From Candidatus Poribacteria bacterium (lineage in GTDB: Bacteria; Poribacteria; DTPJ01; WJIO01): a stretch of DNA of 36,764 nucleotides. The DNA is taken from assembly GCA_014730235.1 (NCBI GenBank), contig WJIO01000288.1, forward strand, positions 1-36,764, read 5' to 3'. Shown in pieces: positions 511-21,091 of the stretch. How positions within the stretch are numbered: position 1 is the stretch's first letter; every line of letters begins with the position of its first letter. Under the pieces are notes generated by a model, which made no database searches, was not told the origin of the DNA, and saw nothing but the letters and a program-made list of their open reading frames with translations. The translations under genes and the position numbers were made by a program.

Positions 511-515
511 AACAC

Positions 516-2468
516 CTATATCCAGAAAATCATATTACCCCTGCCGCCTGCAATGGCATCTATCACCAGCCATGTGCCGTTGCAGGTAAACTGCCCCAAT
601 ATTAACCCCAGGAATAATGGACGCATTTTCTGGAACAGCTTTAACCCCCCGTATCTGACGACTATAGTCTTGATCAACCAGGCCATGAAGATAGTAAACC
701 AGATGTGATCCATGATCCACACGGGCCCGATAGCAAATCCTATAGGATGAAAAGGCCACCAGAGAAACCTGGCTCTCATAAACATAAGAAGCCACATAAC
801 AGCCGCTCCGCCGGCTGTTATGTACCATCCTAGCCAGTTGGGTTCTGTCGGATTCATGATCTTGCTGACAAAAAAGTCAAAAGGTGCTCTTGCGCCGCCG
901 CCAAAAAACCAGCTATTGCAGTTCAGCCCACCTTGATCATAGGCCAATCTCAGTAAAACCCATGCTGAAGAAATCATTGTTATAATAATTGCCAGGATCA
1001 TAGCACCAAAAAGAGGTTTTCTGCTTTTCCCCTCACCTTCCATAACCTTCAGGCTGTTGGCTGAAGAAGCCATGACAAAAGTCCTCAGGTCGCCAGACCA
1101 TACATAAGTCAGACTCATGGCTGTCAATCCCTGAGGGCCAAGGGGGCCAGTTCCTAGACCTGAGACAACGAAAGATGACGATATGGTGGAGGCTACAGCC
1201 TCGGCCATTCCGCTTTCTGCTACAACCCTTGTCAAACCTATAAATAAAAGCATCGCGCCGAATAAAAACAAAAGTGTTACGGATAGCGGCATCCCCGACA
1301 TGTTAAGCCAGATGGTCATTATAATTAAGCCTATAATAGTTCCAAAGACTGCGGTTCTATATGAAAGCATTTCCCCAGAGTCATCCACATCCGCATTTCG
1401 GGTAAAGGCCTTTTTAAGGACATCTTTCAGGTGGCTTCTGCCTATCCATAATCCTGCCAGAACCAGGGTAATCATGGCTCCCATACCCTGATGGGCAAAT
1501 ACCGGGGAGGGTGTTCCATATATACCCAGGCTTTCCCGCATGGATACACCAAATGTATTCATAATCCCCCTTACCATAAGACTCAGCAGATTGAAAAACC
1601 ATAAGCTGAAAGCCGTATCAAGATGAACCAGGTAAAAGAAACCCAGCATGGGAAAGCTCAACCTGAAATGCAAACCAAGAGACCGACGGAATATCGGCAC
1701 GCTTTGCACCAGTTCCATACTGGGCACAGATGGAAAATAATGATGCAAACCCTTCATACTGCTTAAAATAAAAGGAATACCAAATCCTATCCACATAACA
1801 CCGTTTTTAAAAAAAGGTTTAACAGGTGAATTACCTTCATCTTTTACCATTTCCAGAGGTAATTGAGCCAGGGGATATACCAGCCGTTCCCTGTCCATCC
1901 ACTGTTTCCGCAGAATTACGGTTATGCAGATCATTACAAAATACAGGGATAGCAGTAGTATGCTCCATATTAGAAGGGGTTTGATCCATATACCCCAGGG
2001 AACACCTGAATCCCATGCAGGAGAACCTTCGTAGAAGTATTTTATCTGCCTTTTTCCCTGGGGAACAAGCCAGGGCTTTATATGGGGATGAAGCACCTCC
2101 GCCCAGCTATTCTCCGGTAGGGCATAATAAAAAGGTGCGGTAAGAATAGGCAATATCTGGGCCGTCAAACCCATGGTGGGAATAGCACAGGCTACAGTCA
2201 TCATGGTGTAGACGGTTTTCAGTTCTGATGATGTAAGAGATGCTCTCAGGCTTAATTTACCAATAAAAGCATTTATCAAAGCCACCAGGACGAAAAATAA
2301 AAATATTGCCCCGGCAGTACTGAAATCAATGGCCATATACGAACCATGTATAACCATCAAGCCATATTGAGTACCTACGCCAATAGCCAATGAACCCAGA
2401 GAACCAGCAAGGAAGGCCCGCCAGGTGAAGGGATTATCTATGGATTTATTAATAATGGTGTTTTCCAT
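516..2468 (-). CDS. DUF6785-type polytopic membrane protein (putative transporter)
   Basis: A 650-residue protein with a dozen or more hydrophobic segments. It has the pattern of the DUF6785/DUF6784 family, whose arrangement recalls OPT-type oligopeptide transporters; its substrate is unknown. It shares blocks with the second copy at 7537: RxxAE (here RVVAESGM), FLWWPFHP near the C-terminus, and a final KYGG...LILGQF block. It lies 7 bases downstream of the kbaZ-like gene on the same strand and has no convincing Shine-Dalgarno sequence of its own, so it is probably translated by coupling in a two-gene operon. That pairing suggests uptake of a carbohydrate-related compound, but this is inference from neighbourhood only. 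Confidence 0.75.
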   Translation of the reverse strand: MENTIINKSIDNPFTWRAFLAGSLGSLAIGVGTQYGLMVIHGSYMAIDFSTAGAIFLFFVLVALINAFIGKLSLRASLTSSELKTVYTMMTVACAIPTMGLTAQILPILTAPFYYALPENSWAEVLHPHIKPWLVPQGKRQIKYFYEGSPAWDSGVPWGIWIKPLLIWSILLLSLYFVMICITVILRKQWMDRERLVYPLAQLPLEMVKDEGNSPVKPFFKNGVMWIGFGIPFILSSMKGLHHYFPSVPSMELVQSVPIFRRSLGLHFRLSFPMLGFFYLVHLDTAFSLWFFNLLSLMVRGIMNTFGVSMRESLGIYGTPSPVFAHQGMGAMITLVLAGLWIGRSHLKDVLKKAFTRNADVDDSGEMLSYRTAVFGTIIGLIIMTIWLNMSGMPLSVTLLFLFGAMLLFIGLTRVVAESGMAEAVASTISSSFVVSGLGTGPLGPQGLTAMSLTYVWSGDLRTFVMASSANSLKVMEGEGKSRKPLFGAMILAIIITMISSAWVLLRLAYDQGGLNCNSWFFGGGARAPFDFFVSKIMNPTEPNWLGWYITAGGAAVMWLLMFMRARFLWWPFHPIGFAIGPVWIMDHIWFTIFMAWLIKTIVVRYGGLKLFQKMRPLFLGLILGQFTCNGTWLVIDAIAGGRGNMIFWI

Positions 2469-2475
2469 TACTCAA

Positions 2476-3738
2476 TTACAGGACTTTATTGCTTATCCCC
2501 TTCATATTAAATGCGTTCACATAACTCATTATAGAATCTTTAACGGCATCCACCAAAACTCTCTCAGGTGATTCTGCGATACCCAGGGTTTTTACGTTGT
2601 CATAAAGCCTTTTACGGGAAGCTTTTACTTCATCAACCTCAAAGACATAATGACCGCAAACTGATGTTACATCATCCAATTTTTCCCTGTTACCGGCAAT
2701 ATCTTCTCCTGTAAGTCCTTCATCCTCTTTCAAGAGCCACTTTTTCCATCTTTTACAGTCCAAAGCGGCTTTTTGTATGACCTTTTTAAAACCCGATGGA
2801 GTTAAATCCTTTTTATTAGCAATAGCTTCTGCCTCTTTTTCCGCCAGGGATATTAAAGCCCTGGTTTCCACCAGACCATACTCCGGGGCTACGTTTGCTC
2901 CGGTTATTCCCAGTTCGGGATGGTGTTTCAGAATATCCAGAGGTAAATAATCGGCGTTATGCTCCTTAAATCCGATATTGTATTTTTTGGCAATTTCACA
3001 AAGCTGTTTTGCGCTTTCAGCATCAAAAGTTCCCACGTTTTGATCCATTTTCACCAGTGTTCCTGTTTGACCCACTATAAATGCAGGATGCGAAAGGTTA
3101 CGTTTGTCCAGTTCTGCCAGCAGATCGGCGATAAATTTCTCGAAGGCCTCCGGTGATATAAGACCACCTGCGGTTTCCTCAGTGCCTATTTCATAAGATA
3201 CAGGTGGAAGGTTTAATTCTTTTACTTTACCCTCTGTAAATTCTATCAACTCCAGTGTCCGTTCGATTACCATATCCATAGCAACAGGTCCATCTGCACA
3301 ATGGGGATCTTTTGTAGGGTCAATATGCAGAAGATTGAATCCGGCTTCTATATCCTCTAAATACGATTGTTTGGCTATTTCCATAGCTTCATCCGGCGGA
3401 AGTTTGCTGTTTTTTTCTTTATCTCTCTGCCATGGTCCTCCATGATCCCTACATAGATACAACAGACCGTCAAAACCCACATCGTCAGCAATCTGCCTGA
3501 TGGCATCGGCAAACTGCTTTTGATCCCATCCCATAACGTATCCGCCGCCGAATTTATGGGAATCTATCTGATTTCTGCTGGCGATAAACAAAACCGGAAA
3601 ATCCATATCCCGGCCCAGTTCCAGGGCGGCGATCATAACCACTTTTGACATGGGACCAATCCCCAGAATCGTGGCTTCAATATTTTTTTCATACATCCTA
3701 CTTACAAAATCCCTGAGGGATACAGCAGTTTTCGGCAC
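2476..3738 (-). CDS. D-tagatose-bisphosphate aldolase class II, non-catalytic subunit-like (KbaZ/GatZ family)
   Basis: A 420-residue TIM-barrel protein of the GatZ/KbaZ family. Family signatures seen are SRNQID followed by GGYVMGWDQ, LCRDHGGPWQ, NLLHIDPTKD, YEIGTEETAGG, VGQTGTLVKMDQN, KEHNADYL and ANVAPEYGLVETRAL. In enterobacteria the partner (KbaY/GatY) carries out aldol cleavage of tagatose-1,6-bisphosphate and this subunit stabilises it. No KbaY/GatY gene is in the window, so the protein may act alone on another sugar phosphate, as in many genomes with lone family members. The start is GTG at 3738, chosen because AAGGAG (complement of 3746-3751) sits about 7 bases upstream. It heads an operon with the DUF6785 gene. 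Confidence 0.85.
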   Translation of the reverse strand: MPKTAVSLRDFVSRMYEKNIEATILGIGPMSKVVMIAALELGRDMDFPVLFIASRNQIDSHKFGGGYVMGWDQKQFADAIRQIADDVGFDGLLYLCRDHGGPWQRDKEKNSKLPPDEAMEIAKQSYLEDIEAGFNLLHIDPTKDPHCADGPVAMDMVIERTLELIEFTEGKVKELNLPPVSYEIGTEETAGGLISPEAFEKFIADLLAELDKRNLSHPAFIVGQTGTLVKMDQNVGTFDAESAKQLCEIAKKYNIGFKEHNADYLPLDILKHHPELGITGANVAPEYGLVETRALISLAEKEAEAIANKKDLTPSGFKKVIQKAALDCKRWKKWLLKEDEGLTGEDIAGNREKLDDVTSVCGHYVFEVDEVKASRKRLYDNVKTLGIAESPERVLVDAVKDSIMSYVNAFNMKGISNKVL

Positions 3739-3791
3739 CTCTATTCTCCTTTTAGTTATTCGGCTTTTACGACTTAAGTAATTTGTCAGAA

Positions 3792-3821
3792 AATATATTC
3801 AGCTTTTCCCTTAATGGGCAA
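3792..3821 (-). promoter_or_regulatory. Candidate promoter for kbaZ-like/DUF6785 operon
   Basis: On the minus strand TTGCCC (3821-3816) and TATATT (3797-3792) are separated by 18 bases and lie about 55 bases ahead of the GTG start. The -35 matches only partly. The -35 lies inside an imperfect inverted repeat (TTCCCTTAATGGG at 3806-3818 against CCCATTTAATAAGGGAA downstream), which could be an operator. Confidence 0.4.
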
Positions 3822-3914
3822 GGTCCATTATTCCCATTTAATAAGGGAACTAGGGTTATTTTCAGCGCGCTGAAGACTTTGAGATCTTGAAAGAATATTC
3901 TTGAAATTGCTTAC

Positions 3915-4037
3915 CTTCTATTCGGCATTCCTGCGAAAGCAGGAATCCAGTAGCTTAACATGATAACTGAATTTCTGTTTTCGCAGGAATAACAAGCTGA
4001 GAGATTTTTTTTATTAAAACAATAAACCCGTAAGAAC
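3915..4037. repeat. MITE-like palindromic repeat, copy 1 (double-hairpin form)
   Basis: The core ATTCCTGCGAAAGCAGGAAT at 3927-3946 is a perfect hairpin. It is followed by CCAGTAG, a short spacer and a second TTTCGCAGGAAT arm with ACAAGCTGAGAG after it. The right terminal part AAACCCGTAAGAAC (4024-4037) is the inverted form of the family end TTCTTCCGGGTTT. The left terminal part is too decayed to delimit. It fills the gap between the kbaZ-like gene and the 3' end of the MBL gene. Confidence 0.75.
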
Positions 4038-4040
4038 TAA

Positions 4041-5405
4041 TCATTCTTTAATTTTAACCGGACAAGTAATAGAACTCCAACCAGCAAGACCACCTAAAAT
4101 TACAGCAACATTATCCCAACCGTTATTCTGCAAAAAGCTGGCTGCTACCATTGATCGCAGACCGCTGCCGCAAAAGACATAAACAGGCTTATCTTTAGGC
4201 ACTTCGTCAATACGCTCAGGTAATTGGGTCAGATGGATATTATGAGCATCGGTAATACGGGCGGATTCAATTTCTTCTTCACTCCGAACATCCAGGATCC
4301 ATGCTTTCTTTCGATCGTCCAGAAGATGACATAAATCATGTACCTCAACCAACTTTATAGACTGGGTTTCCTTACCTGACATAAACCACTCATGCATTTC
4401 GTTATACAGGTATCCTGCAATATTGTCAAATCCTATCCTGATTAACATTCTTACGACTGTTTCAGGATTATTTGTTTCATTGACCAGCAGTATAGGTTTA
4501 TCGTAGGTTAAAAACCATCCGGCAAAACTGGGCACACCCTTTAACCATATAGCTTTAGAGTCGGGAACATGAGCAGCCCCAAAGCCTGTCTCTGTCCTGG
4601 TATCCAAAACAATAGCGTTTTCAGCCATTTCAGCAAATTTATCCGGTGATAAGGGCGGTGGAGAAGGTAGATTTCCCAATACAGGCGCACCTTCCAGATT
4701 CAGCTTTTCCATCATGCGGAAATAGGGTGGCCTTTCCAGTTCCACAGCCATCTTTTCCACAAACTCAGCTTTATCCGTATACCTCAGTTTTGGATTATTT
4801 TTACGCTCTATTCCAATGGTGGTCATAGGACGACTGGCAATAGCCGTTCCACAAACCGAACCTGAGCCATGTCCGGGACATACTATAACATCATCACCCA
4901 GGGGAAGAAGTTTATTAAAAAGCGAGTCATACAAAAGTCCAGCCATTTCATCCATCAAATCCAACCCCGGCAGATCAACCCGACCAATATCACCCGCAAA
5001 CAGTGCATCACCGGTAAACACAATCCAGGGAATACCAGCAGAATCATGAAGCAGGTAACTCATAGAGCCAGGTGTATGACCGGGAGTGCAAATAACCTTT
5101 AATTCAAGGCTTCCAATACTCCATGTCTGACCATCCTCGGATGGTTTCCCATACTGATAATCCAGTTCAGCATCAGCATGCCATATTTCAGCACCACATC
5201 TTGCCGCCAATTCCACTGAGCCAATGATATAGTCCTCATTTCGATGGGTTTCCATAATATATTTTATCTGATAACCACCCTCAGCCGCCATATCCATGTA
5301 AACGCCGCAGTCCCGGCGCGGATCTATAACAACAGCCTGGTTGCCATCACCAATAATATAAGAATAATGGGCCAAACCTTTCGATTCAATACGTTCAAAA
5401 AGCAT
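4041..5405 (-). CDS. MBL-fold hydrolase fused to two rhodanese domains (ETHE1/persulfide dioxygenase-like)
   Basis: 454 residues. An N-terminal metallo-beta-lactamase domain (about 1-200) is followed by two rhodanese domains (about 255-335 and 350-450). The usual HxHxDH motif reads H54-R-N56-E-D58-Y59, so the second and last histidines are replaced. The residues matching the mononuclear iron ligands of human ETHE1 (His, His, Asp) are all present as H54, H110 (TPGHTPGS) and D133 (FTGDALFAGD). H179 of CPGHGSG is also kept. The first rhodanese domain lacks a catalytic Cys (LLVNETNN), whereas the second has C412 in the loop CGSGLRS. The likely role is glutathione or other low-molecular persulfide oxidation and sulfane-sulfur transfer; this is inferred from the family. 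ATG start, with GGAGGT (complement of 5414-5419) about 8 bases upstream. Confidence 0.85.
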   Translation of the reverse strand: MLFERIESKGLAHYSYIIGDGNQAVVIDPRRDCGVYMDMAAEGGYQIKYIMETHRNEDYIIGSVELAARCGAEIWHADAELDYQYGKPSEDGQTWSIGSLELKVICTPGHTPGSMSYLLHDSAGIPWIVFTGDALFAGDIGRVDLPGLDLMDEMAGLLYDSLFNKLLPLGDDVIVCPGHGSGSVCGTAIASRPMTTIGIERKNNPKLRYTDKAEFVEKMAVELERPPYFRMMEKLNLEGAPVLGNLPSPPPLSPDKFAEMAENAIVLDTRTETGFGAAHVPDSKAIWLKGVPSFAGWFLTYDKPILLVNETNNPETVVRMLIRIGFDNIAGYLYNEMHEWFMSGKETQSIKLVEVHDLCHLLDDRKKAWILDVRSEEEIESARITDAHNIHLTQLPERIDEVPKDKPVYVFCGSGLRSMVAASFLQNNGWDNVAVILGGLAGWSSITCPVKIKE

Positions 5406-5439
5406 TCGTCAATACCTCCATTAAGTATATATAAATAAT

Positions 5440-5650
5440 TTGGTTCTTCCGGGTTTGCTTTGGTAATAATTTGAAAATTCTCTCAACTTGTCATTCCCAC
5501 ATACTTTATTCGTCATTCCTGCGAAAGCATGAATCCAGTCATTATCTTAAGCTCCTGGATTCATGCTTTCGCAGGAATGACGAATAGAGGATATTTTTTC
5601 TTAATTAGACAATGTTTTTTATATTTCCACACTTAAGTCGGAAGAACGAA
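5440..5650. repeat. MITE-like repeat, copy 2 (long form, 31-bp perfect stem)
   Basis: The left end GGTTCTTCCGGGTTTGC (5442) and right end CTTAAGTCGGAAGAAC (inverted) bound about 210 bases. The centre has perfectly complementary 31-base arms at 5508-5538 and 5555-5585 around a 16-base loop; this stem contains the family core GTCATTCCTGCGAAAGC. The inner right half resembles the left half of copy 3 (inverted), so the two define a long subfamily. The element fills most of the gap between the MBL gene and the first LamG gene. Confidence 0.85.
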
Positions 5651-5730
5651 GAATTTTAATTCCAGAAACAGGATAACAAATTTTATCTGTCATATCAAGC
5701 ATTATTAAGCAGAAACGGCAAATTAAAGCC

Positions 5731-5759
5731 TTGACTTAAAAACTATGTTGGTTTATGAT
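5731..5759 (+). promoter_or_regulatory. Sigma70-type promoter for tandem LamG genes
   Basis: TTGACT (5731-5736) and TATGAT (5754-5759) are separated by exactly 17 bases and lie about 70 bases before the ATG at 5829. Transcription would start near 5766. This is the best -35/-10 match in the gap. Confidence 0.65.
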
Positions 5760-5828
5760 TGTTAATTGATAGCTTGGTATATTTGTTTTACAAAGCTTTT
5801 TAGTTTTACCTTAAAAGGAGGTATAAGA

Positions 5829-6653
5829 ATGAGGTTTTCGCATTTAATATTAGCATCGCTTATATGCCTTTTATCTACAATTGGTATACATGCAGCGGTT
5901 GTAGATGGAGTGGTATTACATCTTCCATTTGACGAAGGTTCAGGCACAGTTACCCAGGACATGTCAGGTAATGGAAATGATGCCACGCTTGTTGGAAATC
6001 CACAGTGGGTTGATGGCAAATTCGGTATGGCTTTGCAGTTTAATGGTGAAGAAAATTCCAATTATGTGGAAGTTCCCGATAGCCCAAGCCTTAACCCGGA
6101 ACTGGAAATTACATGCGCAGCGTGGATCTACTTTGATGAATTTCATCCTTCAGCAGGTATAATATCCAAGTATATAGGTTCAGGAAACCAGAGAAGTTAT
6201 AATATCCATATGAACCATACTGAGGATTCTTTGGCTATCGCTTCTGGATGTTCATCAAATGGAATATACCAGGCCGGGGTTAGCACTACAGTGACTAATA
6301 CAGAAGAAGGAACACTAACGGCTGGTGAATGGCAGCATGTGGCCATGACTTTCAGAGCCAGTGAATTTCTGAGAATTTATATAAATGGAGAATTAAAAGC
6401 CGATGAAGATGCTTCAGCGACAGAAAGTATCTTTGATAATGAAGTTCCTTTGCTTATTGGTACCGATTTTGAAATAGGTGGAGAACATAATGGACAGCCA
6501 CGAGAATTTACCGGTATTATAGACGAGGTTATGGTTTTCAATAGAGCCTTGTCTGATGAAGAAATTGGCGAGATAATGGAAGGAACATCAACGGCTGCCT
6601 TAGACGCAACAGGAAAACTTACAACAACATGGGCATCAATGAAGGAGGAATAA
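5829..6653 (+). CDS. Secreted LamG (concanavalin A-like) domain protein 1
   Basis: 274 residues. A signal peptide (MRFSHLILAS... ending near IHAA) is followed by one LamG/laminin-G_3 jelly-roll domain: LHLPFDEGSG, DMSGNGNDATL, GKFGMALQFNGEE, AAWIYFDEF, ISKYIG, GEWQHVAMTF, LRIYINGELKAD, GIIDEVMVFNRALSDEEI. The protein ends in the tail GKLTTTWASMKEE, shared with four other proteins here. The start is the ATG preceded by AGGAGGT with 6-base spacing; an upstream in-frame ATG at 5766 is rejected because it lacks such a site and would put a non-signal stretch in front. The domain usually binds glycans or proteins at the cell surface; the ligand is unknown. It is probably co-transcribed with the near-identical downstream copy. 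Confidence 0.88.
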   Translation: MRFSHLILASLICLLSTIGIHAAVVDGVVLHLPFDEGSGTVTQDMSGNGNDATLVGNPQWVDGKFGMALQFNGEENSNYVEVPDSPSLNPELEITCAAWIYFDEFHPSAGIISKYIGSGNQRSYNIHMNHTEDSLAIASGCSSNGIYQAGVSTTVTNTEEGTLTAGEWQHVAMTFRASEFLRIYINGELKADEDASATESIFDNEVPLLIGTDFEIGGEHNGQPREFTGIIDEVMVFNRALSDEEIGEIMEGTSTAALDATGKLTTTWASMKEE

Positions 6654-6656
6654 TCA

Positions 6657-7478
6657 ATGAAATTCTGGAAGACGCTGACTATATCAGTGATTTTCTGCAT
6701 GATGGTCGCTCTTTCCAGCAGTGCTGCACCAATTGAAGGGGTGGTTCTTTATCTTCCATTTGATGAAGGTGAAGGGGACACGGCGGAAGATCAATCAGGA
6801 AATGGAAATGACGGAGCTTTAATGGGAAACCCTGAATGGGTTAATGGTAAATTTGGTAAAGCTTTACAATTTAATGGTGAAGAAAACACTAATTATGTAG
6901 AAATTCCTGACAGCCCGGACCTTAATCCACCTGAAGAAATTTCTCTGACCGCCTGGATATTTATTGATGATTTTGTACCTACAGGAGGTATAATATCCAA
7001 ATATATCGGAGCAGGAAATCAGAGAAGTTATAATCTTCATATGAATCATACTCCCGGAGCTTTTGCAATAACTTCAGGAGTATCTTCAAATGGTGCTTTC
7101 CAGGCAGGCGTCAGCACTACGTCGGTAAGCATGGAAAACGGAACGTTAGTAGCCGGGGAATGGCAGCATGTAGGCATGACCTTTAAGGCAAGTGATTTTC
7201 TCAGAATTTATCACAACGGGGAAATGAAAGCCGAAGCTGATGCAGCAGCTACTGAAAGTATATTTGACAATAATGTCACATTACTTATTGGAACAGACTT
7301 CGATGTAGGTGGGGCACATAATGGCCAAGCCCGTGAATTTACAGGTATAATTGACGAGGTGGCTATCTTCAATCGAGCTCTTTCTGACGGGGAAATGATG
7401 ACAGTCATGGAAGGCAATATAATGCCTGTGGAATATGCTGGAAAACTGGCTTCAACCTGGGCTTCAATTAAAAGATAA
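6657..7478 (+). CDS. Secreted LamG domain protein 2 (tandem duplicate)
   Basis: 273 residues, co-linear with the preceding protein over the whole LamG domain (VLYLPFDEGEGD, QSGNGNDGALMGN, NYVEIPDSPDLNP, ISKYIGAGNQRSYN, GEWQHVGMTF, GIIDEVAIFNRALSD). It is clearly a tandem duplicate with diverged codons. The signal peptide is MKFWKTLTISVIFCMMVALS up to SSAA. The tail is GKLASTWASIKR. Its Shine-Dalgarno GGAGG lies inside the last codons of gene 1, and only 3 bases separate the two reading frames, so the pair is an operon. A perfect 14-bp-arm hairpin follows the stop. Confidence 0.88.
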   Translation: MKFWKTLTISVIFCMMVALSSSAAPIEGVVLYLPFDEGEGDTAEDQSGNGNDGALMGNPEWVNGKFGKALQFNGEENTNYVEIPDSPDLNPPEEISLTAWIFIDDFVPTGGIISKYIGAGNQRSYNLHMNHTPGAFAITSGVSSNGAFQAGVSTTSVSMENGTLVAGEWQHVGMTFKASDFLRIYHNGEMKAEADAAATESIFDNNVTLLIGTDFDVGGAHNGQAREFTGIIDEVAIFNRALSDGEMMTVMEGNIMPVEYAGKLASTWASIKR

Positions 7479-7494
7479 AATACGTTTTAAATTA

Positions 7495-7524
7495 TTTACA
7501 GCGGAATTTTAATTCCGCTGTAAA
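7495..7524 (+). terminator. Hairpin after tandem LamG genes
   Basis: Perfect 14-base arms (TTTACAGCGGAATT and its complement) flank a 2-base centre, starting 16 bases after the stop of LamG 2. There is no U-run after it, so it may be a weak terminator or an mRNA-stabilising hairpin. It ends 12 bases before the next ATG and could also limit translation of that gene. Confidence 0.55.
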
Positions 7525-7536
7525 TACAGATATTCT

Positions 7537-9453
7537 ATGAGTTATAATAATACCGAGAGAAAAAAAGTAACCCTTCGCGCTCTCCTTATAGTTTTAATAT
7601 TCCTGCCTGTAAACAGCTACTGGATCATACAAACAGAGTTGGTGCATTATTCATCCCACCCCACCACCCTTTCCCTGCTTTTTAACGTAATACTTTTTAT
7701 ATTCTTCCTCATAGGCATAAATCTATTTCTATCGAAAATATTACCTAAATATGCCTTTACCCAGCAGGAGTTACTGACTATATATATACTTTTGTCCATA
7801 GGCTCTACCATGAGCGGTCATGACATGGTTCAGGTAATTGCTCCTATGCTTGGGCATGCTTATCGTTTCGCCACGCCGGAAAACGAATGGAAGGAGATAT
7901 TCTGGCAGTACCTACCCCGCGACCTGACAATTGATAACCAGAAAGCTCTGGACGGTCTATATACAGGAGAATCCACTATATACAATGTGGATATCATCAA
8001 GGCGTGGTTGGAAAGTATTCTCAGATGGACAGTCTTTTATGTGCTGTTGCTGTGGGTAATGCTGTGTATAAACATTGTCTTCAGAAAAAGGTGGACAGAA
8101 AACGAAAAACTTACATATCCCATTATACAACTACCGATGGAAATGACCCAGGAAGGCGGCAAGAGGCTGTTTGCTAACCGATTGCTGTGGATCGGATTTG
8201 CCATTGCCGGTGGGATAAGCCTTGTAAATGGGCTTCATTTTATTTATCCATCTGTACCGGAGATTCATGTCCGGCATTATAACCTCGTCCAGTTTTTCCC
8301 CGAAAAGCCCTGGAGTGCCATAGGCAGAACACGCTTGACACTATATCCATTTGCCATAGGCATGGGATATTTTATACCCCTGGAGCTTTCCTTTTCCTGC
8401 TGGTTTTTCTACTGGGTTGGAAAAGCTGTTATGGTGACCGGAAGCGCAGTGGGATGGAAGAGCATACCCGGTTTCCCGTTTATGAGCGAACAGGCTCTGG
8501 GGGGGAGCCTGGGGATTGTCATTGCCGTAACATGGGCTGCCCGGAAGTATCTGTTGAATATACTGAAAAACATCTTTAATGCAAATTCGGATGATTCAAA
8601 CGAACCGATGAAATATCGCACAGCATTTATCGGCGGTTTTGCAGGTATGATACTTCTGCTATTATTTTTGTGGTCTGCCGGAACTTCCCTTTGGGTGTCA
8701 GTGGTTTTCTTTATATTCTACTTTGGTATATCTATCGCCTTAACCAGAATCCGGGCGGAACTCGGGCCTCCCATTATCAGCCTCTGGGTGTGGGGGGAAA
8801 GTTCAACGGACCCGGGACAGAAGCTGGTTAAATTTTTCGGCACTCGTCGTGTAGGTTCTACAAACTTGACAATACTGACGCTGCTTTTCTGGTTCAACCG
8901 GGATCATCGCTGTCATCCCATGCCCCATCAACTTGAGGGATTGGAGATTGCCCGGCGCACAAAAATTAAATCAAGTTCCCTTGTATTTCCTATGATGCTT
9001 GTGGCTGGTTTAAGTTCCCTGACTGCTTTCTGGGCTTATCTGCATATATACTATAAGCTGGGGATAACCGGAGGTTTTGCATGGGAACCGTTTAATCGTT
9101 TACAAAACTGGCTTACTGTATCCCAATCACCTGACTGGATGGCCATAGGAGCTACAGGTTTCAGCTTTGTGTTTACCCTGTTTCTCATGTTTATGCGTCG
9201 GCAGTTTCTGTGGTGGCCCTTTCATCCTGTAGGATATATACTGGCCGGCACATGGAGCGTTGACAATATATGGATGCCATTATTCATAAGCTGGACAGCC
9301 AAATTATTATTAACGAAATACGGTGGTATCAAGGCCTATCGTCGGGCTGTGCCGTTTTTCGCCGGGCTTATACTTGGTCAGTTTATTATTGGTGGTTTAT
9401 GGAGCATACTGGGAACGATCTTTGAAATACCAATAAATTTTTATTTTGTATAA
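7537..9453 (+). CDS. DUF6785-type polytopic membrane protein, second copy
   Basis: 638 residues with many membrane segments, the first being RALLIVLIFLPVNSYWI. It is a distant paralogue of the 516-2468 protein. Both have RxxAE (here RIRAELGPP), FLWWPFHPVGY near residue 560 and a C-terminal KYGGIKAYRRA...LILGQF block. It differs by a region rich in Arg/His between membrane segments (FWFNRDHRCHPMPHQLEG). The family is thought to be transport-related from its topology; no substrate is known. No clear Shine-Dalgarno precedes the ATG, and the preceding hairpin is very close. It is co-directional with the LamG pair, but the hairpin may separate it. Confidence 0.75.
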   Translation: MSYNNTERKKVTLRALLIVLIFLPVNSYWIIQTELVHYSSHPTTLSLLFNVILFIFFLIGINLFLSKILPKYAFTQQELLTIYILLSIGSTMSGHDMVQVIAPMLGHAYRFATPENEWKEIFWQYLPRDLTIDNQKALDGLYTGESTIYNVDIIKAWLESILRWTVFYVLLLWVMLCINIVFRKRWTENEKLTYPIIQLPMEMTQEGGKRLFANRLLWIGFAIAGGISLVNGLHFIYPSVPEIHVRHYNLVQFFPEKPWSAIGRTRLTLYPFAIGMGYFIPLELSFSCWFFYWVGKAVMVTGSAVGWKSIPGFPFMSEQALGGSLGIVIAVTWAARKYLLNILKNIFNANSDDSNEPMKYRTAFIGGFAGMILLLLFLWSAGTSLWVSVVFFIFYFGISIALTRIRAELGPPIISLWVWGESSTDPGQKLVKFFGTRRVGSTNLTILTLLFWFNRDHRCHPMPHQLEGLEIARRTKIKSSSLVFPMMLVAGLSSLTAFWAYLHIYYKLGITGGFAWEPFNRLQNWLTVSQSPDWMAIGATGFSFVFTLFLMFMRRQFLWWPFHPVGYILAGTWSVDNIWMPLFISWTAKLLLTKYGGIKAYRRAVPFFAGLILGQFIIGGLWSILGTIFEIPINFYFV

Positions 9454-9655
9454 CTGGTTCTTCCAACTTGAATTTGGAAATATAAAAATCATTGTCTAAT
9501 AAAACAATATTTTCTGTTTATAATTCCTGTATCCTCCGTTTGTCATTCCTGCGGAAGCAGGAATCCAGTAGATCCGCATAAAGACTCGATTCCTGCCTTC
9601 GCAGAGATGACAATCTGATAGAATTTCCAAATTATTAACAACCTAAACCCAAAAC
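9452..9655. repeat. MITE-like repeat, copy 3 (long, double-hairpin form)
   Basis: The left end GGTTCTTCC overlaps the stop of the DUF6785 gene. The following stretch (ATATAAAAATCATTGTCTAA) is the inverted counterpart of the right half of copy 2. The core GTCATTCCTGCGGAAGC is followed by CCAGTAGATCCGCATAAAG and a second CCTTCGCAG arm. The right end (about 9640-9655, ACCTAAACCC) is decayed. It sits between two convergent genes. Confidence 0.75.
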
Positions 9656-9667
9656 AACAGTATAACT

Positions 9668-10468
9668 TTATTGTTTTATCTCTCCCCATGTAACACTAAG
9701 TTTACCCGAAGATGATACTGACAACGCGCTCTCAATACCATTATTCATAAGGTCATTAATCTCAGCTTCCGAAAGGGCTTGTCTGAGTATAATAACTTCG
9801 TCCAGGATACCACCCATAAAACGACCTGTATGACTCATAAAATGTAAAGGCGCATCGTTTGTGCCAACATCAAAATCAGCACCATCCATAGAAGCCTCTT
9901 CAACTCCGTCAATATATAGTCTTATAGTTCCACCTTCCCTTGTGCCAACTAGATGATGCCATTCATCATCATTAACCAAAGTATTACTGGCTATGTGGAA
10001 ATTCGCTGATGCCGCATCTCTAAGGAATAGGCTCATATTACCTGTAGCTGCCTTTGCCTGATCCGCGTAATACAGGGCATACCAGGGCAAAACCTGTGCT
10101 GGGTGGTAATTCTTCGCTATTATCATAGGGGGTGCGTCTTCAGGAGTTGTTATCAAAAGCCAGCAGGCCAGGGTAAAGTCAACACCTTCAGGAAATTCAA
10201 GGCTGTCATCATCAGGTACTTCAACCCATCCGTCTGCGCCATCAAAGCTCAGTGCTCCACCAAATTTTCCATCTGCTGTCCATTCCACGCCACCCATGAT
10301 ATTACCATCGTTGCCATTTTCTGATAGATCTACGGCTGTGTCTCCTTCGTCACTATCAAAAAGCCATATACCCGCAATGTCCTCTATAGCACCGTTGGCG
10401 ACACTAACACCTAAAGTTATACAAAAAATCAGAGAGATTAATATAAAACGCAAATTAATCTTGAGCAT
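9668..10468 (-). CDS. Secreted LamG domain protein 3
   Basis: 266 residues. The signal peptide MLKINLRFILISLIFCITLG is cleaved near VANG, and one LamG domain follows: GIWLFDSDEGD, DLSENGNDGNI, GKFGGALSFDGADGWVEVPD, LACWLLI, DDEWHHLVGTREGG, IRLYIDGVEE, GGILDEVIILRQALSEAEI. The tail SSGKLSVTWGEIKQ matches the other secreted proteins. It is more distant from LamG 1 and 2 than they are from each other. The ATG is preceded by AGGAGG with 7-base spacing. It appears monocistronic, with a repeat element on each side. Confidence 0.87.
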   Translation of the reverse strand: MLKINLRFILISLIFCITLGVSVANGAIEDIAGIWLFDSDEGDTAVDLSENGNDGNIMGGVEWTADGKFGGALSFDGADGWVEVPDDDSLEFPEGVDFTLACWLLITTPEDAPPMIIAKNYHPAQVLPWYALYYADQAKAATGNMSLFLRDAASANFHIASNTLVNDDEWHHLVGTREGGTIRLYIDGVEEASMDGADFDVGTNDAPLHFMSHTGRFMGGILDEVIILRQALSEAEINDLMNNGIESALSVSSSGKLSVTWGEIKQ

Positions 10469-13003: not shown

Positions 13004-13516
13004 TTGTCTGAAAATAACGACATCAACCTCACAGAAAACCAGCAAAAAACCTATGAATTACTTACATCAGCATGTAAATACAGCCTAAGACGTGGTACGC
13101 TGTGCCTTGTAGGTGATTTTCAATCAGGTAAAACAACTCTTGCAAAATACTTCCTGTCACAAAAATTCGACAATCCTGATAAATATTACCTAAATTTGAA
13201 TCTCTTCCTTCTTGAGTATTTGAGAAAAGAGTCAGATGAACTTCCAGTTCTCGGTAACATGCAGGCCAAAACAAGGTTGGTGATGGAAGTTGCTCTTGAA
13301 GAATATATAGAAGATCATTACAAAGAAAATGACATTCTCGTCCTTGATGCAATCGAAATTATTTATCCATATCGTCTCAATCTGGCTTCACTGATTAGCA
13401 GGCATACCCGGGATGGCAAGATATGTATAATCTGCGTTCCTGAAAACGAAAAATTTGTGTTTGATTTTTCATGGGGAAATTGTGAGATAATAAGTTTAGA
13501 AACTAAAGAAAAATAG
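13004..13516 (+). CDS. P-loop ATPase resembling BrxF of type 3 BREX
   Basis: 170 residues, a single small P-loop NTPase domain. Walker A is GDFQSGKT (37-44) and Walker B is ILVLDAIE (111-118, Asp115). Between them is a YYLNLNLFLLEYL stretch, and a CIICVPE strand follows Walker B. Size, motif spacing and position immediately ahead of a DUF6079/BrxC-like giant ATPase match BrxF of type 3 BREX systems, in which brxF and brxC are adjacent. The start is TTG at 13004 with AGGA 9 bases upstream; no better start exists. The next gene begins 13 bases after its stop. Its biochemical role in BREX is not well established. Assignment is by pattern and context, so an unrelated small AAA-type ATPase is still possible. 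Confidence 0.65.
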   Translation: MSENNDINLTENQQKTYELLTSACKYSLRRGTLCLVGDFQSGKTTLAKYFLSQKFDNPDKYYLNLNLFLLEYLRKESDELPVLGNMQAKTRLVMEVALEEYIEDHYKENDILVLDAIEIIYPYRLNLASLISRHTRDGKICIICVPENEKFVFDFSWGNCEIISLETKEK

Positions 13517-13529
13517 GAAAGTGAAACAG

Positions 13530-16500
13530 ATGCCAAAGATAAAAGACATTATTGAAGTACCACCAGTTAAAACCGTCATTGAATTATCAACGGTAAGGGA
13601 TTCAGAAGGTGAAACCCCCGAAGAACTGAATCAATTACTGGATACATTTGTAATAACCGATGATATCGAGCGAAATCTAAAAATAATACTGGACAGGATA
13701 AGCAATTATCCCTATCAGGGTATGGGATTTTTCCTTACAGGAAATTTCGGTTCCGGTAAATCTCATTTTCTCTCTGTGATTAGTTTGCTGCTACAGTATC
13801 CCTGGGCCTGGGAGCATGTAGTTTCTCAAAGCGAAGCTATACAGCAGTATGGGGATAATATTAAAGAACGCAGATATCTGGTGGTGCAGATTCCCCTTCT
13901 TGAATACAGAAAGACTGATTCCCTGGAGGACATCTTCTGGAAAAGCATTGAGGAGACAATGGCATCTTCAAAATATAGAATATTTGCCCCACTTGCCCAA
14001 TCTTCCTACTTTCTTGAACAGTTTGAAAAATACATAATACCAGCCCATTCCAGAGAATTAAACAAATTTATCCAGGGTAAGCTGAGTTCTAAATATACAT
14101 GGGGAACTATTCGCCAGGAAAGCGTTGAGGATGCAATACTTTTTGCCCAGGAATTTCTTAAATTAAACGCGACAAATATACCTTTCAGGTTGACCCTGGA
14201 AAGACAGAAAACCTGGAATAGATTGATGGTTATAATGAAACAAAACGAATTATCAGGTCTGGTGGTTTTAATGGACGAATTGAGCGAATTCCTGAAATCC
14301 AAGCCTGATAACAAGGCCCTTAATGAGGACACACGCTTTCTGCAATTTATCGGAGAAAAATCCACCCATGCACCGGTGTGGATAGTCGGCGCGCTCCAGG
14401 AGGCAATTGAGAGAACCGGCGACATAAGCCAGGTCACTTTTAATAAAATCAAAGACAGATACCAGAGGAATCTTGAGCTATCAACCCGCCATATAAGGGA
14501 ATTGATTGACCGGCGGCTTATCCGCAAGAAAGGCGCAGAATCCATATCGGTCATAAAAGAAGCATACGGCATATTAAAAAGCGGTTTTAGCCACCTGAAA
14601 ATTAGTGAAGATGATTTTTTACAGATTTATCCGGTGCATCCTGAAACTCTGGAACTTCTGGATGTCAACACAAATTTCTTTTCCCAGCGCAGGGGTGTAG
14701 TGGATTTTATACACTATCAGGTCAAAGGTGATCCCATTCGCCAGATACAGGGCATGATGGATGACGAATACACCCAGCTTCTTACACCCGATAAAATCTT
14801 TGACCATTTCTCATTCCGAATAAGGGAAATGGTAGACATAAGCCAGTATTACCAGATTTACCGGGATTATTTTGAGAAGCGAATACTCCGGATTTTTGAT
14901 GATAAAACAGATCAGGAATACGCCCTTAAGCTTGTAAAAATACTGATATTACTAAAGGTTTCCCCTGTTTCTGAAACCCGGACTGTTCGTCAGCTTGCGG
15001 ATATGGTTCTGTATAACTGTACTGATCTGGGCGGCGATTTAAATTATGAATACATACAGGAACAGATTTTAGGCACGCTAAGGACAAAAGCCAGTTACAT
15101 CAAAGTCAATCAGGGAGATGATCCCCTCTCTGATGTTTACTATATTGATCTGGAATCAAAAACAACGGATATAATAGAACATAAGAAAAGGGATATTCTA
15201 CTGAGTTTAACGGAATCTGACCAAAGGGTTCTTGATACAGCCTTTGATCAGTTGGTATACGGCCCTTTACCCCTGGCCCATCTGCGGGGTATATACAGCG
15301 AGAGAAAAAATATTTCGTGGGAAAATACACCAAGATCGGGAATGGCAAAGCTTCAGAATTTAACGGAAATAAGCGAATCAGAAATTGAGGATACCATACA
15401 GCGGCTTAGAACTTCAGAGGATGATTTTGTTTTATATCTGGGAATCCCTTTTGACATTGCCAAACAAAGGGAACACTTTCGAAATATTCTTAATTCATAT
15501 AACGAACGCTTTATCAACGGTCTGGTCTACTGGTTGCCCGAGGAAATAAATAATACAGAAAAAATTCAGATACTAAAGGACTTTTACGCACAACATGAGA
15601 TTTTCGCGGAATATTCTTCTGATGGCAGTAAATCCGGTATAGAACTCAGGGAAAACCTTAAACGTTCTATGGAAGAGATGGTTTTACAGGTTAGGGATGT
15701 TATCGAAGGGGCTTATTTCTCAGGTAAAGTATATACAACTCAGGGTGAAATAACAGGTCTTGAGCTAACCGACTCAAAAACTCAGAATTTCAATACAACC
15801 CTGGCCAGAATAATCAGAGAACCAATAAGAACACTATATCCTGATCATATATCCCCTCAGGTGGAAATATCAACCCGGCGGCTTATAAGCGACCTCATAG
15901 ATGACTTTGTGCGCCCGGGCAGGACAGATGACATAACAGCACCCCATGCAAGATATTTAAGGACTTCTATTGAGGGAATTGCTGTTCCTTTGGGGTTGGC
16001 TAGAAAGCGGGATAATGGTTATGATCTGGATGTGGATGTTAATAAAAATCCTCTCCTTGCCCGGATAGCTGAAATTATACCACAGGCTGAAAATACAGGT
16101 TCAAATTCTGGATCAAACCTTGTTGAATATAAATGGGTTTACCAGCAGTTGCGTAAATCCGAATACGGTATAATCGGGCCTGTCTTTGAGCTATTTATAG
16201 CATCCCTGATGCGTAAAGGTCAGTTAATCGGTTATAAAGGCGGGATACCTGTAAACATATCCCAGGTGGGATTTCCCCTATCCAACTACGTTCAGCAAAT
16301 CGGACAAGGGCAGCTTATCAATGGTGACCTTCGATGGCAGTTGGCGTCAGTTTCTGAGGCGTTATTAGGAGAAAAGCTACAGGATTATGATGTAACAAAA
16401 CAGGAAGAGATATGGGCAAGGCTATGCGATCTCCGGGAAAAGACAATTCGCGGTATTGCAAATATCCGACAGGAGTTGGAAGTCCTTCATGACCGCATGC

Positions 16501-17567
16501 CGTCAGTGGATATTTCAAATATCATGGAAAGTCTTAACAGACTACAATCTTTAATTGCTGAGATCAGACCGAATTTGAGTTCAAAAGAGGGTTTGGAACA
16601 TTTCCTGAAGATTATACCAACCAAACTTTCACCCAATGATGATATATCAAATTTGATGAAACATCTGAAAGCTGTAAAGGTATTTATTGACGAACAGGCC
16701 CAAAACCTTCTTGCCATAAGAAACTACATATTAAGTCCACAGCTTGTAATACCCGAAAGAAAAGAATATTTGGAACTGCGATCATTAAAGAGCAAGGTAG
16801 AGATGCTGATGAAAGTGGATGAAAAATTTATCTTTGGAGATGGTATGGATAAGCTTCAGGGAGCTTTTAAACGCTTCAAAGATGCTTTTACAGCTCGATA
16901 TGCCCAGGAACATAAATCTATCAATGATTCAGTTGATTCCTATAACCTTGAACAGATTAAAAACTCCGACATCTACCAGATATTATCCCAGTTCAGCAAA
17001 ATATCTATGGTTTCAGTACCAAACGATATGGTTAAAATTGGCAAGCTTATTGATAATGAATCCAGAAGATCATGCAATCGGGCAGTTCATGAAGAACTTA
17101 GTCAGTTTCCCATCTGCCAGTGTGGATTTAAGCTTGGAACAGAGCATAAATCTATAAGTGGTTCGAATCTTGCTGAAATGGTAGAATCCGGAATCAGGCA
17201 ATATGTATCATCTTTACAGGAACCACCCTACGGGGAACAGATAGAGGACTATATGACAAAAATGCAGCAGCTTGATCAAAAGATACCCCAGAAGGAACTG
17301 ACGGGCATGTTACGTCTGGATCCTGAGTTACCCATTGATGATCTGAAAGATGAACTGGCCAGGGTTCTCACTCCCACAGCCATACAACATATAAATAGGG
17401 CTTTAGAGGGGGATATTGTCATCGTAAAACGGAATATATCTGAATTATATCAGGATCTTATTGATAGAAAATACCCCAAGGCCAAGGTCCGGGAGATAAT
17501 CAACAGGTGGATGGACGGTGATCAGCATCTCCCGGATGACGTTTACATTATGATTGAAGAAGAATGA
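13530..17567 (+). CDS. BrxC/PglY-like giant ATPase (DUF6079 family)
   Basis: 1345 residues from ATG 13530, numbered here from an in-frame GTG at 13521 whose Shine-Dalgarno would abut it; AGGAAA at 13516-13521 fits the ATG better. N-terminal AAA-type ATPase: Walker A GNFGSGKS (74-81), Walker B VVLMDE (248-253), a sensor-like WIVGALQEAIE near 290, and an Arg-rich KIKDRYQRN/LIDRRLIRKK segment. A long helical, probably coiled-coil remainder follows, with one CxC (ICQCGF) near residue 1195. Length and N-terminal motifs fit DUF6079 proteins, which serve as BrxC/PglY in BREX phage-exclusion systems. In BREX these ATPases work with a PglX methyltransferase and PglZ; none is encoded here. Both ATPase motifs look intact, so it is unlikely to be a dead relic. 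Confidence 0.72.
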   Translation: MPKIKDIIEVPPVKTVIELSTVRDSEGETPEELNQLLDTFVITDDIERNLKIILDRISNYPYQGMGFFLTGNFGSGKSHFLSVISLLLQYPWAWEHVVSQSEAIQQYGDNIKERRYLVVQIPLLEYRKTDSLEDIFWKSIEETMASSKYRIFAPLAQSSYFLEQFEKYIIPAHSRELNKFIQGKLSSKYTWGTIRQESVEDAILFAQEFLKLNATNIPFRLTLERQKTWNRLMVIMKQNELSGLVVLMDELSEFLKSKPDNKALNEDTRFLQFIGEKSTHAPVWIVGALQEAIERTGDISQVTFNKIKDRYQRNLELSTRHIRELIDRRLIRKKGAESISVIKEAYGILKSGFSHLKISEDDFLQIYPVHPETLELLDVNTNFFSQRRGVVDFIHYQVKGDPIRQIQGMMDDEYTQLLTPDKIFDHFSFRIREMVDISQYYQIYRDYFEKRILRIFDDKTDQEYALKLVKILILLKVSPVSETRTVRQLADMVLYNCTDLGGDLNYEYIQEQILGTLRTKASYIKVNQGDDPLSDVYYIDLESKTTDIIEHKKRDILLSLTESDQRVLDTAFDQLVYGPLPLAHLRGIYSERKNISWENTPRSGMAKLQNLTEISESEIEDTIQRLRTSEDDFVLYLGIPFDIAKQREHFRNILNSYNERFINGLVYWLPEEINNTEKIQILKDFYAQHEIFAEYSSDGSKSGIELRENLKRSMEEMVLQVRDVIEGAYFSGKVYTTQGEITGLELTDSKTQNFNTTLARIIREPIRTLYPDHISPQVEISTRRLISDLIDDFVRPGRTDDITAPHARYLRTSIEGIAVPLGLARKRDNGYDLDVDVNKNPLLARIAEIIPQAENTGSNSGSNLVEYKWVYQQLRKSEYGIIGPVFELFIASLMRKGQLIGYKGGIPVNISQVGFPLSNYVQQIGQGQLINGDLRWQLASVSEALLGEKLQDYDVTKQEEIWARLCDLREKTIRGIANIRQELEVLHDRMPSVDISNIMESLNRLQSLIAEIRPNLSSKEGLEHFLKIIPTKLSPNDDISNLMKHLKAVKVFIDEQAQNLLAIRNYILSPQLVIPERKEYLELRSLKSKVEMLMKVDEKFIFGDGMDKLQGAFKRFKDAFTARYAQEHKSINDSVDSYNLEQIKNSDIYQILSQFSKISMVSVPNDMVKIGKLIDNESRRSCNRAVHEELSQFPICQCGFKLGTEHKSISGSNLAEMVESGIRQYVSSLQEPPYGEQIEDYMTKMQQLDQKIPQKELTGMLRLDPELPIDDLKDELARVLTPTAIQHINRALEGDIVIVKRNISELYQDLIDRKYPKAKVREIINRWMDGDQHLPDDVYIMIEEE

Positions 17568-20251: not shown

Positions 20252-21058
20252 TTACCAAGTATTTTCCTTTATACTGGACCATGTTGTACTGAGTTTACCT
20301 GAAGGCTGCACCGGGGTGGATTGAGTTTCTTTAAAATTACGCACTTCAGCTTCAGATAAAGCTCTGTTTTTAAAAATAGCCAGTTCGTCCATAATGCCTA
20401 TAAACATATCATTCTGCCCGAAAGCTGTACTTCCCCAGAGCATCAAGGCATTATCATTAGCTGGCAAAGCAAAGGCAGGATCTTTCGAAGATGACTTTTT
20501 CACACCATCAATGTATAAGCTGGCCTCACCTGCTTCATCTCTGGTTATGGCAATATGAAACCATCTATCGGTTTCAAAGGCGGGATTATTGACAGCCAGG
20601 TCAGGTTGCCATCCTCCGTCTTTGTATACATGAAGCAGAAGTTCTCCGGTGCTTAACTTACCCAGGCGGCAGCCGCCGGGATTTTTGTCATCTGCACCTT
20701 TGTCAAAGAAAAACTGATGGCGTTCTCCGGTAATTTCGGTAAAATTTACCCACAGAAGAATGGAATATACCTCAGTAATATCCAGACTATCTGAATCCGC
20801 AACTTCCACATAATTTTCCGGGCTTCCGCTAATCATCAGACCATTGTCATATTTACCTTCCACAAGTTCATAAATTCCCTTTGCTGTGCCAAAATTTTCG
20901 TTACCGGAATAGTCTTCCAGTATATTACCATCCAGTTCATCGAATTTAAAATACAATACCAGTCCTTCTTCTTCTATTGCATAAGAAAAATTAAATATAC
21001 TAATAATAATAATTAATAACAGTGAAATAGGCATCAATTTGCTCAAAGCTACAAGCAT
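20252..21058 (-). CDS. Secreted LamG domain protein 4
   Basis: 268 residues from ATG 21058. An upstream in-frame TTG (21070) overlaps the GGAGG ribosome site and is rejected. Signal peptide LVALSKLMPISLLLIIIISI to about SYA, then a LamG domain: GLVLYFKFDELDGN, DYSGNENFGTA, YVEVADSDSLDI, ILLWVNFTE, RWFHIAITRDEAGEASLYID, MDELAIFKNRALSEAEV. Tail PSGKLSTTWSSIKENTW, four residues longer than in the others. It is the middle gene of the 22159-19522 operon, with gaps of about 20-35 bases on each side. Confidence 0.86.
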   Translation of the reverse strand: MLVALSKLMPISLLLIIIISIFNFSYAIEEEGLVLYFKFDELDGNILEDYSGNENFGTAKGIYELVEGKYDNGLMISGSPENYVEVADSDSLDITEVYSILLWVNFTEITGERHQFFFDKGADDKNPGGCRLGKLSTGELLLHVYKDGGWQPDLAVNNPAFETDRWFHIAITRDEAGEASLYIDGVKKSSSKDPAFALPANDNALMLWGSTAFGQNDMFIGIMDELAIFKNRALSEAEVRNFKETQSTPVQPSGKLSTTWSSIKENTW

Positions 21059-21091
21059 TATTACCTCCAAAACTAGTTTCTACCTGTCACC

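What the first reader, a model, noticed from the sequence alone, without database searches (positions are those of the whole stretch)
13004..17567. Orphan BrxF/BrxC-like ATPase pair without the rest of a BREX system
Two adjacent P-loop ATPases (170 and about 1345 residues, 13 bases apart) match the brxF-brxC start of type 3 BREX by size, order and motifs (GDFQSGKT/ILVLDAIE and GNFGSGKS/VVLMDE). BREX normally needs a PglX methyltransferase, a PglZ phosphatase-like protein and a helicase. None is encoded within 13 kb upstream or 19 kb downstream. All nucleotide-binding motifs are intact and there is no frameshift, so it looks maintained. It may be a minimal or reassigned BREX-derived ATPase module with its own function. 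Seen: motifs, order, absence of partners in the window. Known: BREX-3 composition. Inferred: a standalone role.
Basis: partly seen in the sequence, partly recalled or inferred. Interest (0 to 1): 0.8.

Follow-up and report, generated by a model that had tools for sequence, protein, structure and literature searches.

The report
BREX-derived core complex lacking its methyltransferase
Two neighbouring ATPase genes from a Poribacteria genome belong to a lineage that split from phage-defence (BREX) genes and lives without the DNA-marking methyltransferase; a BREX-like nuclease-type enzyme elsewhere in the same genome, found fused to the same ATPase in other bacteria, is its probable partner.

Summary
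In detail: an intact BrxF-like ATPase (170 aa) and an intact DUF6079/BrxC ATPase (1348 aa) lie side by side with no pglX, pglZ or helicase in the window. It is not a broken BREX-3 locus. The ATPase falls in a separate DUF6079 clade (support 100/99), and no member seen (Poribacteria, CSSED10-310, Halanaerobiales) has a methyltransferase nearby (159 kb of flanks). In Halanaerobiales it is fused to a PglZ-type domain and preceded by a TPR gene. The same type of PglZ is encoded in the window's genome, unlinked, between prs and groEL. Across 84 Poribacteria genomes the BrxF-like protein and this PglZ occur together (16 both, 1 one only, 67 neither). In three relatives a TPR gene directly precedes the BrxF-like gene. 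Best reading: a methyltransferase-free derivative of the BrxB:BrxC:PglZ core complex, scattered over the chromosome and apparently inherited vertically. Its role is unproven: host DNA or nucleotide maintenance, or defence without self-methylation. Against strict coupling, the BrxC part is missing from 14 of the 16 genomes with the other two. The host also carries a fragmentary BREX-1 locus with its own, interrupted, brxC. Literature read here does not describe this group.

The parts
13004..13516 (+). BrxF-like P-loop ATPase (P0001), 170 aa, TTG start; member of a family found in 17 of 84 Poribacteria genomes
   Evidence: ORF; NCBIfam BrxF E 0.0019; profile-profile to BrxF prob 95.8; homologues; alignment
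13112..13135 (+). Walker A of the BrxF-like protein, GDFQSGKT (residues 37-44); G37, F39 and SGKT invariant in 14 homologues
   Evidence: sequence
13346..13357 (+). Walker B-like DAIE (residues 115-118); D115 and E118 invariant in 14 homologues
13521..17567 (+). DUF6079 / BrxC-like AAA+ ATPase (P0002), 1348 aa from GTG (1345 aa from the ATG at 13530)
   Evidence: ORF; PF19557 2.2e-38; PADLOC BrxC 2.4e-33; orthologue 47%; tree
13740..13763 (+). Walker A of the BrxC-like protein, GNFGSGKS (residues 74-81)
   Evidence: sequence; conserved
14262..14279 (+). Walker B of the BrxC-like protein, VVLMDE (residues 248-253)
   Evidence: sequence; D252 and E253 conserved
17115..17129 (+). C-terminal CQCGF (residues 1199-1203), conserved cysteine pair of the DUF6079 tail
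   Evidence: invariant columns C1199, C1201
12546..12965 (+). small membrane protein of unknown family ending 38 bases before the BrxF-like gene; possibly co-transcribed, membership uncertain (a TPR gene takes this place in three relatives)
   Evidence: ORF; no Pfam match; TPR in relatives

Best explanation
The two genes encode the ATPase half of a BREX-derived machine that has no methyltransferase. By analogy with BREX, the BrxC-like AAA+ protein forms ATP-controlled assemblies on DNA, the BrxF-like protein plays the part of BrxB (bridge and regulator), and the metal-dependent phosphodiesterase or nuclease is a PglZ-type protein encoded elsewhere in the genome (contig C366, between prs and groEL). 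A TPR protein is a probable scaffold or sensor in related genomes. In Halanaerobiales the ATPase and PglZ are one polypeptide. With no PglX, self cannot be marked by methylation the BREX way, so the machine must be triggered otherwise; I favour a chromosomal surveillance or maintenance role on aberrant DNA or nucleotides over phage restriction. Shown: sequence kinship, fusion, co-occurrence, conserved catalytic motifs, absence of a linked methyltransferase. Inferred: physical complex, nuclease activity, trigger and role.
For: Separate clade with 100/99 support, apart from BREX-1, -3 and -5 BrxC. No NPPY-type methyltransferase or PglZ motif in 159 kb of flanks at 15 clade loci; the methyltransferase motif is found in 8 of 9 BREX loci by the same scan. 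The Halanaerobiales fusion C-terminus matches the C366 PglZ family at probability 99.8%, E 1e-28 over 370 columns, against E 3e-3 for PorX and 3e-4 and 9e-5 for two BREX-type PglZ; the C366 protein passes the PglZ cut-off (34.9 against 25 bits), and one fusion passes it too (26.4 bits). Catalytic motifs are kept in the C366 protein and the fusions. BrxF-like protein and this PglZ co-occur 16/1/0/67 in 84 genomes and diverge in parallel (Spearman 0.93). A TPR gene directly precedes the fusion at 8 of 8 loci where that side was examined, and directly precedes the BrxF-like gene in G001, G064 and G059; the G001 and Halanaerobiales TPR proteins align over 323 aa at E 2e-36, against 1e-5 over 171 aa for a control TPR. 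In BREX-1, BrxB:BrxC:PglZ form the core complex (PMC13326643) and PglZ is a nuclease (PMC12205998).
Against: The BrxC-like protein is found in only 2 of the 16 genomes that have both BrxF-like protein and PglZ; even the one-contig genome G035 lacks it. No BrxF-like protein beyond P-loop noise in Halanaerobiales or CSSED10-310. No PglZ of this type found in the CSSED10-310 genome. Co-occurrence follows families and may partly be shared ancestry. BrxF assignment is below the curated cut-off. Predicted structures were poor: P0001 pLDDT 39; fusion C-terminus pLDDT 53, whose best Foldseek match is BREX PglZ 9zn5_B but only at E 0.067. The window has a membrane-protein gene where relatives have TPR. 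Many genomes are incomplete MAGs.
Confidence: 0.55

Rival explanations
1. A remnant of a type 3 BREX locus that lost pglX, pglZ, brxH and brxA and is decaying.
For: brxF-brxC order and size fit BREX-3; the BrxF-like protein matches BrxF best.
Against: Both genes intact with all nucleotide-binding motifs; a 47%-identical full-length orthologue in another family; ATPase branches apart from BREX-3 BrxC; the BrxF-like family is conserved in 17 genomes, in most without any BrxC beside it.
Confidence: 0.08
2. A defence system that works without methylation: the ATPases and the PglZ nuclease recognise invading DNA by another feature (for example ends or replication forks), with genes scattered instead of clustered.
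For: All three protein families are otherwise mostly defence proteins; other BREX-related systems reuse PglZ with BrxC or BrxB homologues outside classic BREX (PMC12839542).
Against: No defence genes around, ordinary GC (0.405 against 0.416 for the window), housekeeping neighbours of the PglZ, parallel descent of BrxF-like protein and PglZ.
Confidence: 0.2
3. The BrxF-like plus PglZ pair is the real unit; the adjacent BrxC-like gene is an optional add-on with a separate role.
For: BrxF-like protein and PglZ co-occur in 16 genomes, BrxC-like protein in 2 of these.
Against: Fusion of the same ATPase type to the same PglZ type in Halanaerobiales and a related TPR neighbour tie them together; identity between G000 and G064 is similar for the three proteins (47, 49 and 40%).
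Confidence: 0.12
4. The pair serves as a spare ATPase module for the host's own BREX-1 locus (contig C118), whose brxC carries an in-frame stop.
For: The same genome has brxA, brxB, an interrupted brxC and a pglX cut by the contig end.
Against: P0002 is only about 24% identical to that BrxC over residues 31-352; the orthologue in G064 exists without a detectable BREX-1 BrxC; the stop may be an assembly error.
Confidence: 0.05

Closest known systems
Type 3 BREX (brxF, brxC/DUF6079, pglXI, brxHII, pglZ, brxA)
   Same: brxF-brxC order, adjacency, sizes and nucleotide-binding motifs
   Different: no methyltransferase, helicase, BrxA or linked PglZ; ATPase is in another clade; BrxF match below cut-off
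BrxB:BrxC:PglZ core complex of type 1 BREX (PMC13326643)
   Same: the same three kinds of protein occur in one genome; in Halanaerobiales two of them are fused
   Different: no PglX to attach; genes unlinked; BrxF-like protein with an intact ATP site instead of the inactive BrxB; contact untested
BREX-related (BR type 3) and BREX-related capture (BRC) systems (PMC12839542)
   Same: BrxC-type ATPase with PglZ and a STAND-type protein outside classic BREX; the STAND protein of BRC is also active
   Different: BR has a methyltransferase and a DUF499 ATPase; BRC always has a HerA/FtsK translocase in a gene cluster; neither is seen near these genes
PorX (T9SS response regulator with PglZ domain)
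   Same: PglZ-type domain used outside defence; a PorX is encoded on contig C67
   Different: response-regulator domain; much weaker profile match to the Halanaerobiales fusion

Membership tests
DUF6079 / BrxC protein family | Pfam PF19557 above its gathering score | tested here: met
   131.9 bits against 23
DUF6079 / BrxC protein family | NCBIfam BREX_BrxC cut-off | tested here: not met
   77.6 bits against 400
BrxF (NF033453) | curated cut-off of 50 bits | tested here: not met
   17.9 bits
BrxF (NF033453) | profile kinship beyond the P-loop | tested here: met
   104 aligned columns, prob 95.8, E 7e-9; an ABC-ATPase control aligns over 22 columns only, E 1.7e-6
Type 3 BREX system | methyltransferase PglXI in the locus | tested here: not met
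   none in window
Type 3 BREX system | PglZ in the locus | tested here: not met
   PglZ-domain proteins only on contigs C67 and C366
Type 3 BREX system | BrxHII helicase and BrxA in the locus | tested here: not met
   no such gene among window ORFs
Type 3 BREX system | BrxC groups with BREX-3 BrxC | tested here: not met
   separate clade
PglZ domain family (unlinked partner on C366) | PF08665 cut-off and catalytic motifs | tested here: met
   34.9 bits against 25; D512, PSTTE at 547, D619/H623, D662/H663, H748
BRC system | HerA/FtsK translocase in the cluster | tested here: not met
   none in window; whole genome not searched
BrxB:BrxC:PglZ-like complex | physical association and nuclease activity | not testable with these tools
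   needs bench work

The most novel reading that the evidence does not exclude
A vertically inherited, non-defence cellular machine built from the BREX core (BrxF/BrxB-like, BrxC, PglZ) plus a TPR protein, doing chromosome or nucleotide maintenance in Poribacteria, Halanaerobiales and relatives, from which, or parallel to which, methyltransferase-bearing BREX systems arose.
Probability: 0.3. Interest if true: 0.85.

Novelty: new variant of a known kind. Interest (0 to 1): 0.62.

Why it matters
How BREX restricts phage is still debated, and PglX methylation is entangled with the action of BrxB, BrxC and PglZ. A natural lineage that kept the ATPase and PglZ parts but dropped the methyltransferase, in one case as a single fused protein, would let that core be studied alone and would show whether it has a cellular role outside defence. 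The recent BREX census discarded hits without complete neighbourhoods (PMC12839542), which is where such genes would have been lost.

Tried and rejected
A first genome-contig scan with P0002 alone found nothing; a scan with the two-sequence alignment found the clade. Phage records and IMG/VR gave no relative, so there is no sign of phage carriage. AlphaFold of P0001 alone was unusable (pLDDT 39) and was not searched. The fusion C-terminus model is weak and its PglZ match (E 0.067) is not used as proof. A BrxF-like partner in Halanaerobiales was sought with a 14-member profile and not found. The idea that the ATPase is simply diverged beyond PF19557 in other Poribacteria was tested with a clade profile and rejected at that sensitivity. 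The TPR gene next to the BrxF-like gene in genus g8 (G035 and others) matches the G001 TPR only about as well as an unrelated TPR does and is not counted.

Full report
What is there. The window is one whole contig (C227, 36,764 bases) of a 5.5 Mb, 451-contig genome. A 47%-identical orthologue lies in a genome of the same phylum (G064), held publicly as a Candidatus Poribacteria MAG. Two + strand genes, 13004-13516 and 13521-17567, are intact. The larger is a DUF6079/BrxC protein, though far below the BREX BrxC equivalog cut-off. The smaller is BrxF-like: weak by single-sequence HMM, clearer by profile against profile. Around them are DUF6785 proteins, a TPP enzyme, laminin-G proteins, URO-D, ArgJ and peptidases; nothing else belongs to BREX. 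GC is close to that of the window. Two tRNA genes lie at the far right end.

BREX elsewhere in the genome. Contig C118 carries brxA, brxB, brxC and the start of pglX of a type 1 BREX; its brxC is interrupted by an in-frame TAG, and the contig ends inside pglX. It has its own BrxC, so the window pair is not its missing part. Only two PglZ-domain proteins were found genome-wide: PorX on C67 and a 774-aa protein on C366.

Relatives of the ATPase. Among 84 Poribacteria genomes only G064 has a true orthologue (47% over the full length). Its 10-kb contig has no methyltransferase or PglZ, and the 286 bases upstream do not encode a BrxF-like protein. A scan of 84,980 genomes found full-length relatives at 31-32% in five Halanaerobiales and a partial one in CSSED10-310; more Halanaerobiales came from a search of the order. 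A tree puts window, G064, CSSED10-310 and Halanaerobiales in one clade (100/99), apart from BREX-1, BREX-3 and BREX-5 BrxC. CSSED10-310 is a long branch and its exact place is less sure. In 159 kb of flanking sequence at 15 loci there is no NPPY-type methyltransferase; the same scan finds one in 8 of 9 BREX loci. Several of these flanks are short, because contigs end.

The fusion. The full-length Halanaerobiales proteins are 1733-1902 aa: the ATPase is followed by about 450 residues ending in motifs of the type LLLDGMRWD, PTNTE, DDKxH, SDHGF and RYLHGG. This is a PglZ-type phosphodiesterase domain. PF08665 sees it weakly or just above cut-off (26.4 bits), but the profile match to the C366 protein family is strong and runs through the helical linker (probability 99.8%, E 1e-28, 370 columns). 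PorX and two BREX-type PglZ proteins give E 3e-3, 3e-4 and 9e-5 over 40-70 columns. So the PglZ fused to this ATPase in Halanaerobiales is of the kind that the window's genome encodes on C366.

Co-occurrence. The BrxF-like protein is found in 17 Poribacteria genomes and the C366-type PglZ in 16; all 16 have both, and 67 have neither (Fisher p 3e-16, which ignores shared ancestry). By genus it is 11 with both against 10 with neither. Their pairwise identities over ten genomes run in parallel (Spearman 0.93), as expected of vertical descent. The genes are unlinked and sit among unrelated genes. The BrxC-like protein occurs in two of the 16 genomes. That both genomes with it have the other two is weak evidence by itself (about 3% by chance).

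TPR link. In Halanaerobiales a TPR gene directly precedes the fusion at all eight loci where that side was examined. In Poribacteria G001 and G064 a TPR gene overlaps the start of the BrxF-like gene, and in G059 it ends just before it. The G001 and Halanaerobiales TPR proteins align end to end (27.6% over 323 aa, E 2e-36), well above a control TPR. TPR proteins resemble each other, so this is suggestive only. The window has a small membrane protein in that place.

How it probably works. In type 1 BREX, BrxB, BrxC and PglZ form a core complex; BrxC binds DNA under ATP control and BrxB bridges it to PglZ (PMC13326643). [quoted passage not shown] The corresponding motifs are kept here. I infer that the BrxF-like protein, the BrxC-like protein and the C366 PglZ form a similar complex without PglX. 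Lacking methylation, it cannot tell self from non-self the BREX way, and its scattered, vertically inherited genes look more like a chromosomal function than a defence island. Defence without methylation remains possible. Complex formation, activity and role are all untested.

Novelty. The 2026 BREX census describes BrxC with PglZ outside classic BREX (BR type 3 with a methyltransferase; BRC with HerA/FtsK) and says that hits with incomplete neighbourhoods were discarded (PMC12839542). The papers I could search do not mention BrxC-PglZ fusions in Halanaerobiales or such genes in Poribacteria. The library covers open-licence papers only. I class it as a new variant of a known kind.

Noticed in passing
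G000 contig C118 (locus L011), 138-6929: Type 1 BREX locus brxA-brxB-brxC-pglX; brxC has an in-frame TAG at 3068-3070 and pglX is cut by the contig end. The host's BREX-1 may be inactive, or the stop is an assembly error.
   Followed up: partly
L076-L079 (Halanaerobiales): Another DUF6079 arrangement with no methyltransferase evident among the listed neighbouring ORFs: about 302 aa + 264 aa + 1304 aa genes in a row, the first two without a confident Pfam or PADLOC match; a separate clade in the tree.
   Followed up: partly
L080-L083 (Halanaerobiales): Stand-alone 409-697 aa proteins matching only the C-terminal part of DUF6079, in a conserved place between a phosphatidyltransferase-like gene and an amidohydrolase-like gene.
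   Followed up: partly
L016 11983-12327, L017 15077-15421, L019 12934-13278: 114-aa protein right after the BrxC-PglZ fusion; its ending resembles a restriction-endonuclease-type fold by eye, but there is no Pfam or NCBIfam match.
   Followed up: partly
L009 (G059 contig C559): A different, truncated DUF6079 (29% to P0002) next to an AAA ATPase and a DUF4276-like gene, possibly a separate defence locus.
   Followed up: no
L013 8255-18077 (Halorarius plasmid): Methyltransferase, BrxA, a BrxF-like 173-aa protein with an eroded P-loop, DUF6079 and PglZ in a row; a BREX-like set that does not fit the BREX-3 or BREX-5 models well.
   Followed up: partly
window 5766-10468 and 20252-21070: Four laminin-G-like proteins, and two DUF6785/DUF6784 proteins (516-2468 and 7537-9453), in one contig: a local family expansion.
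   Followed up: no
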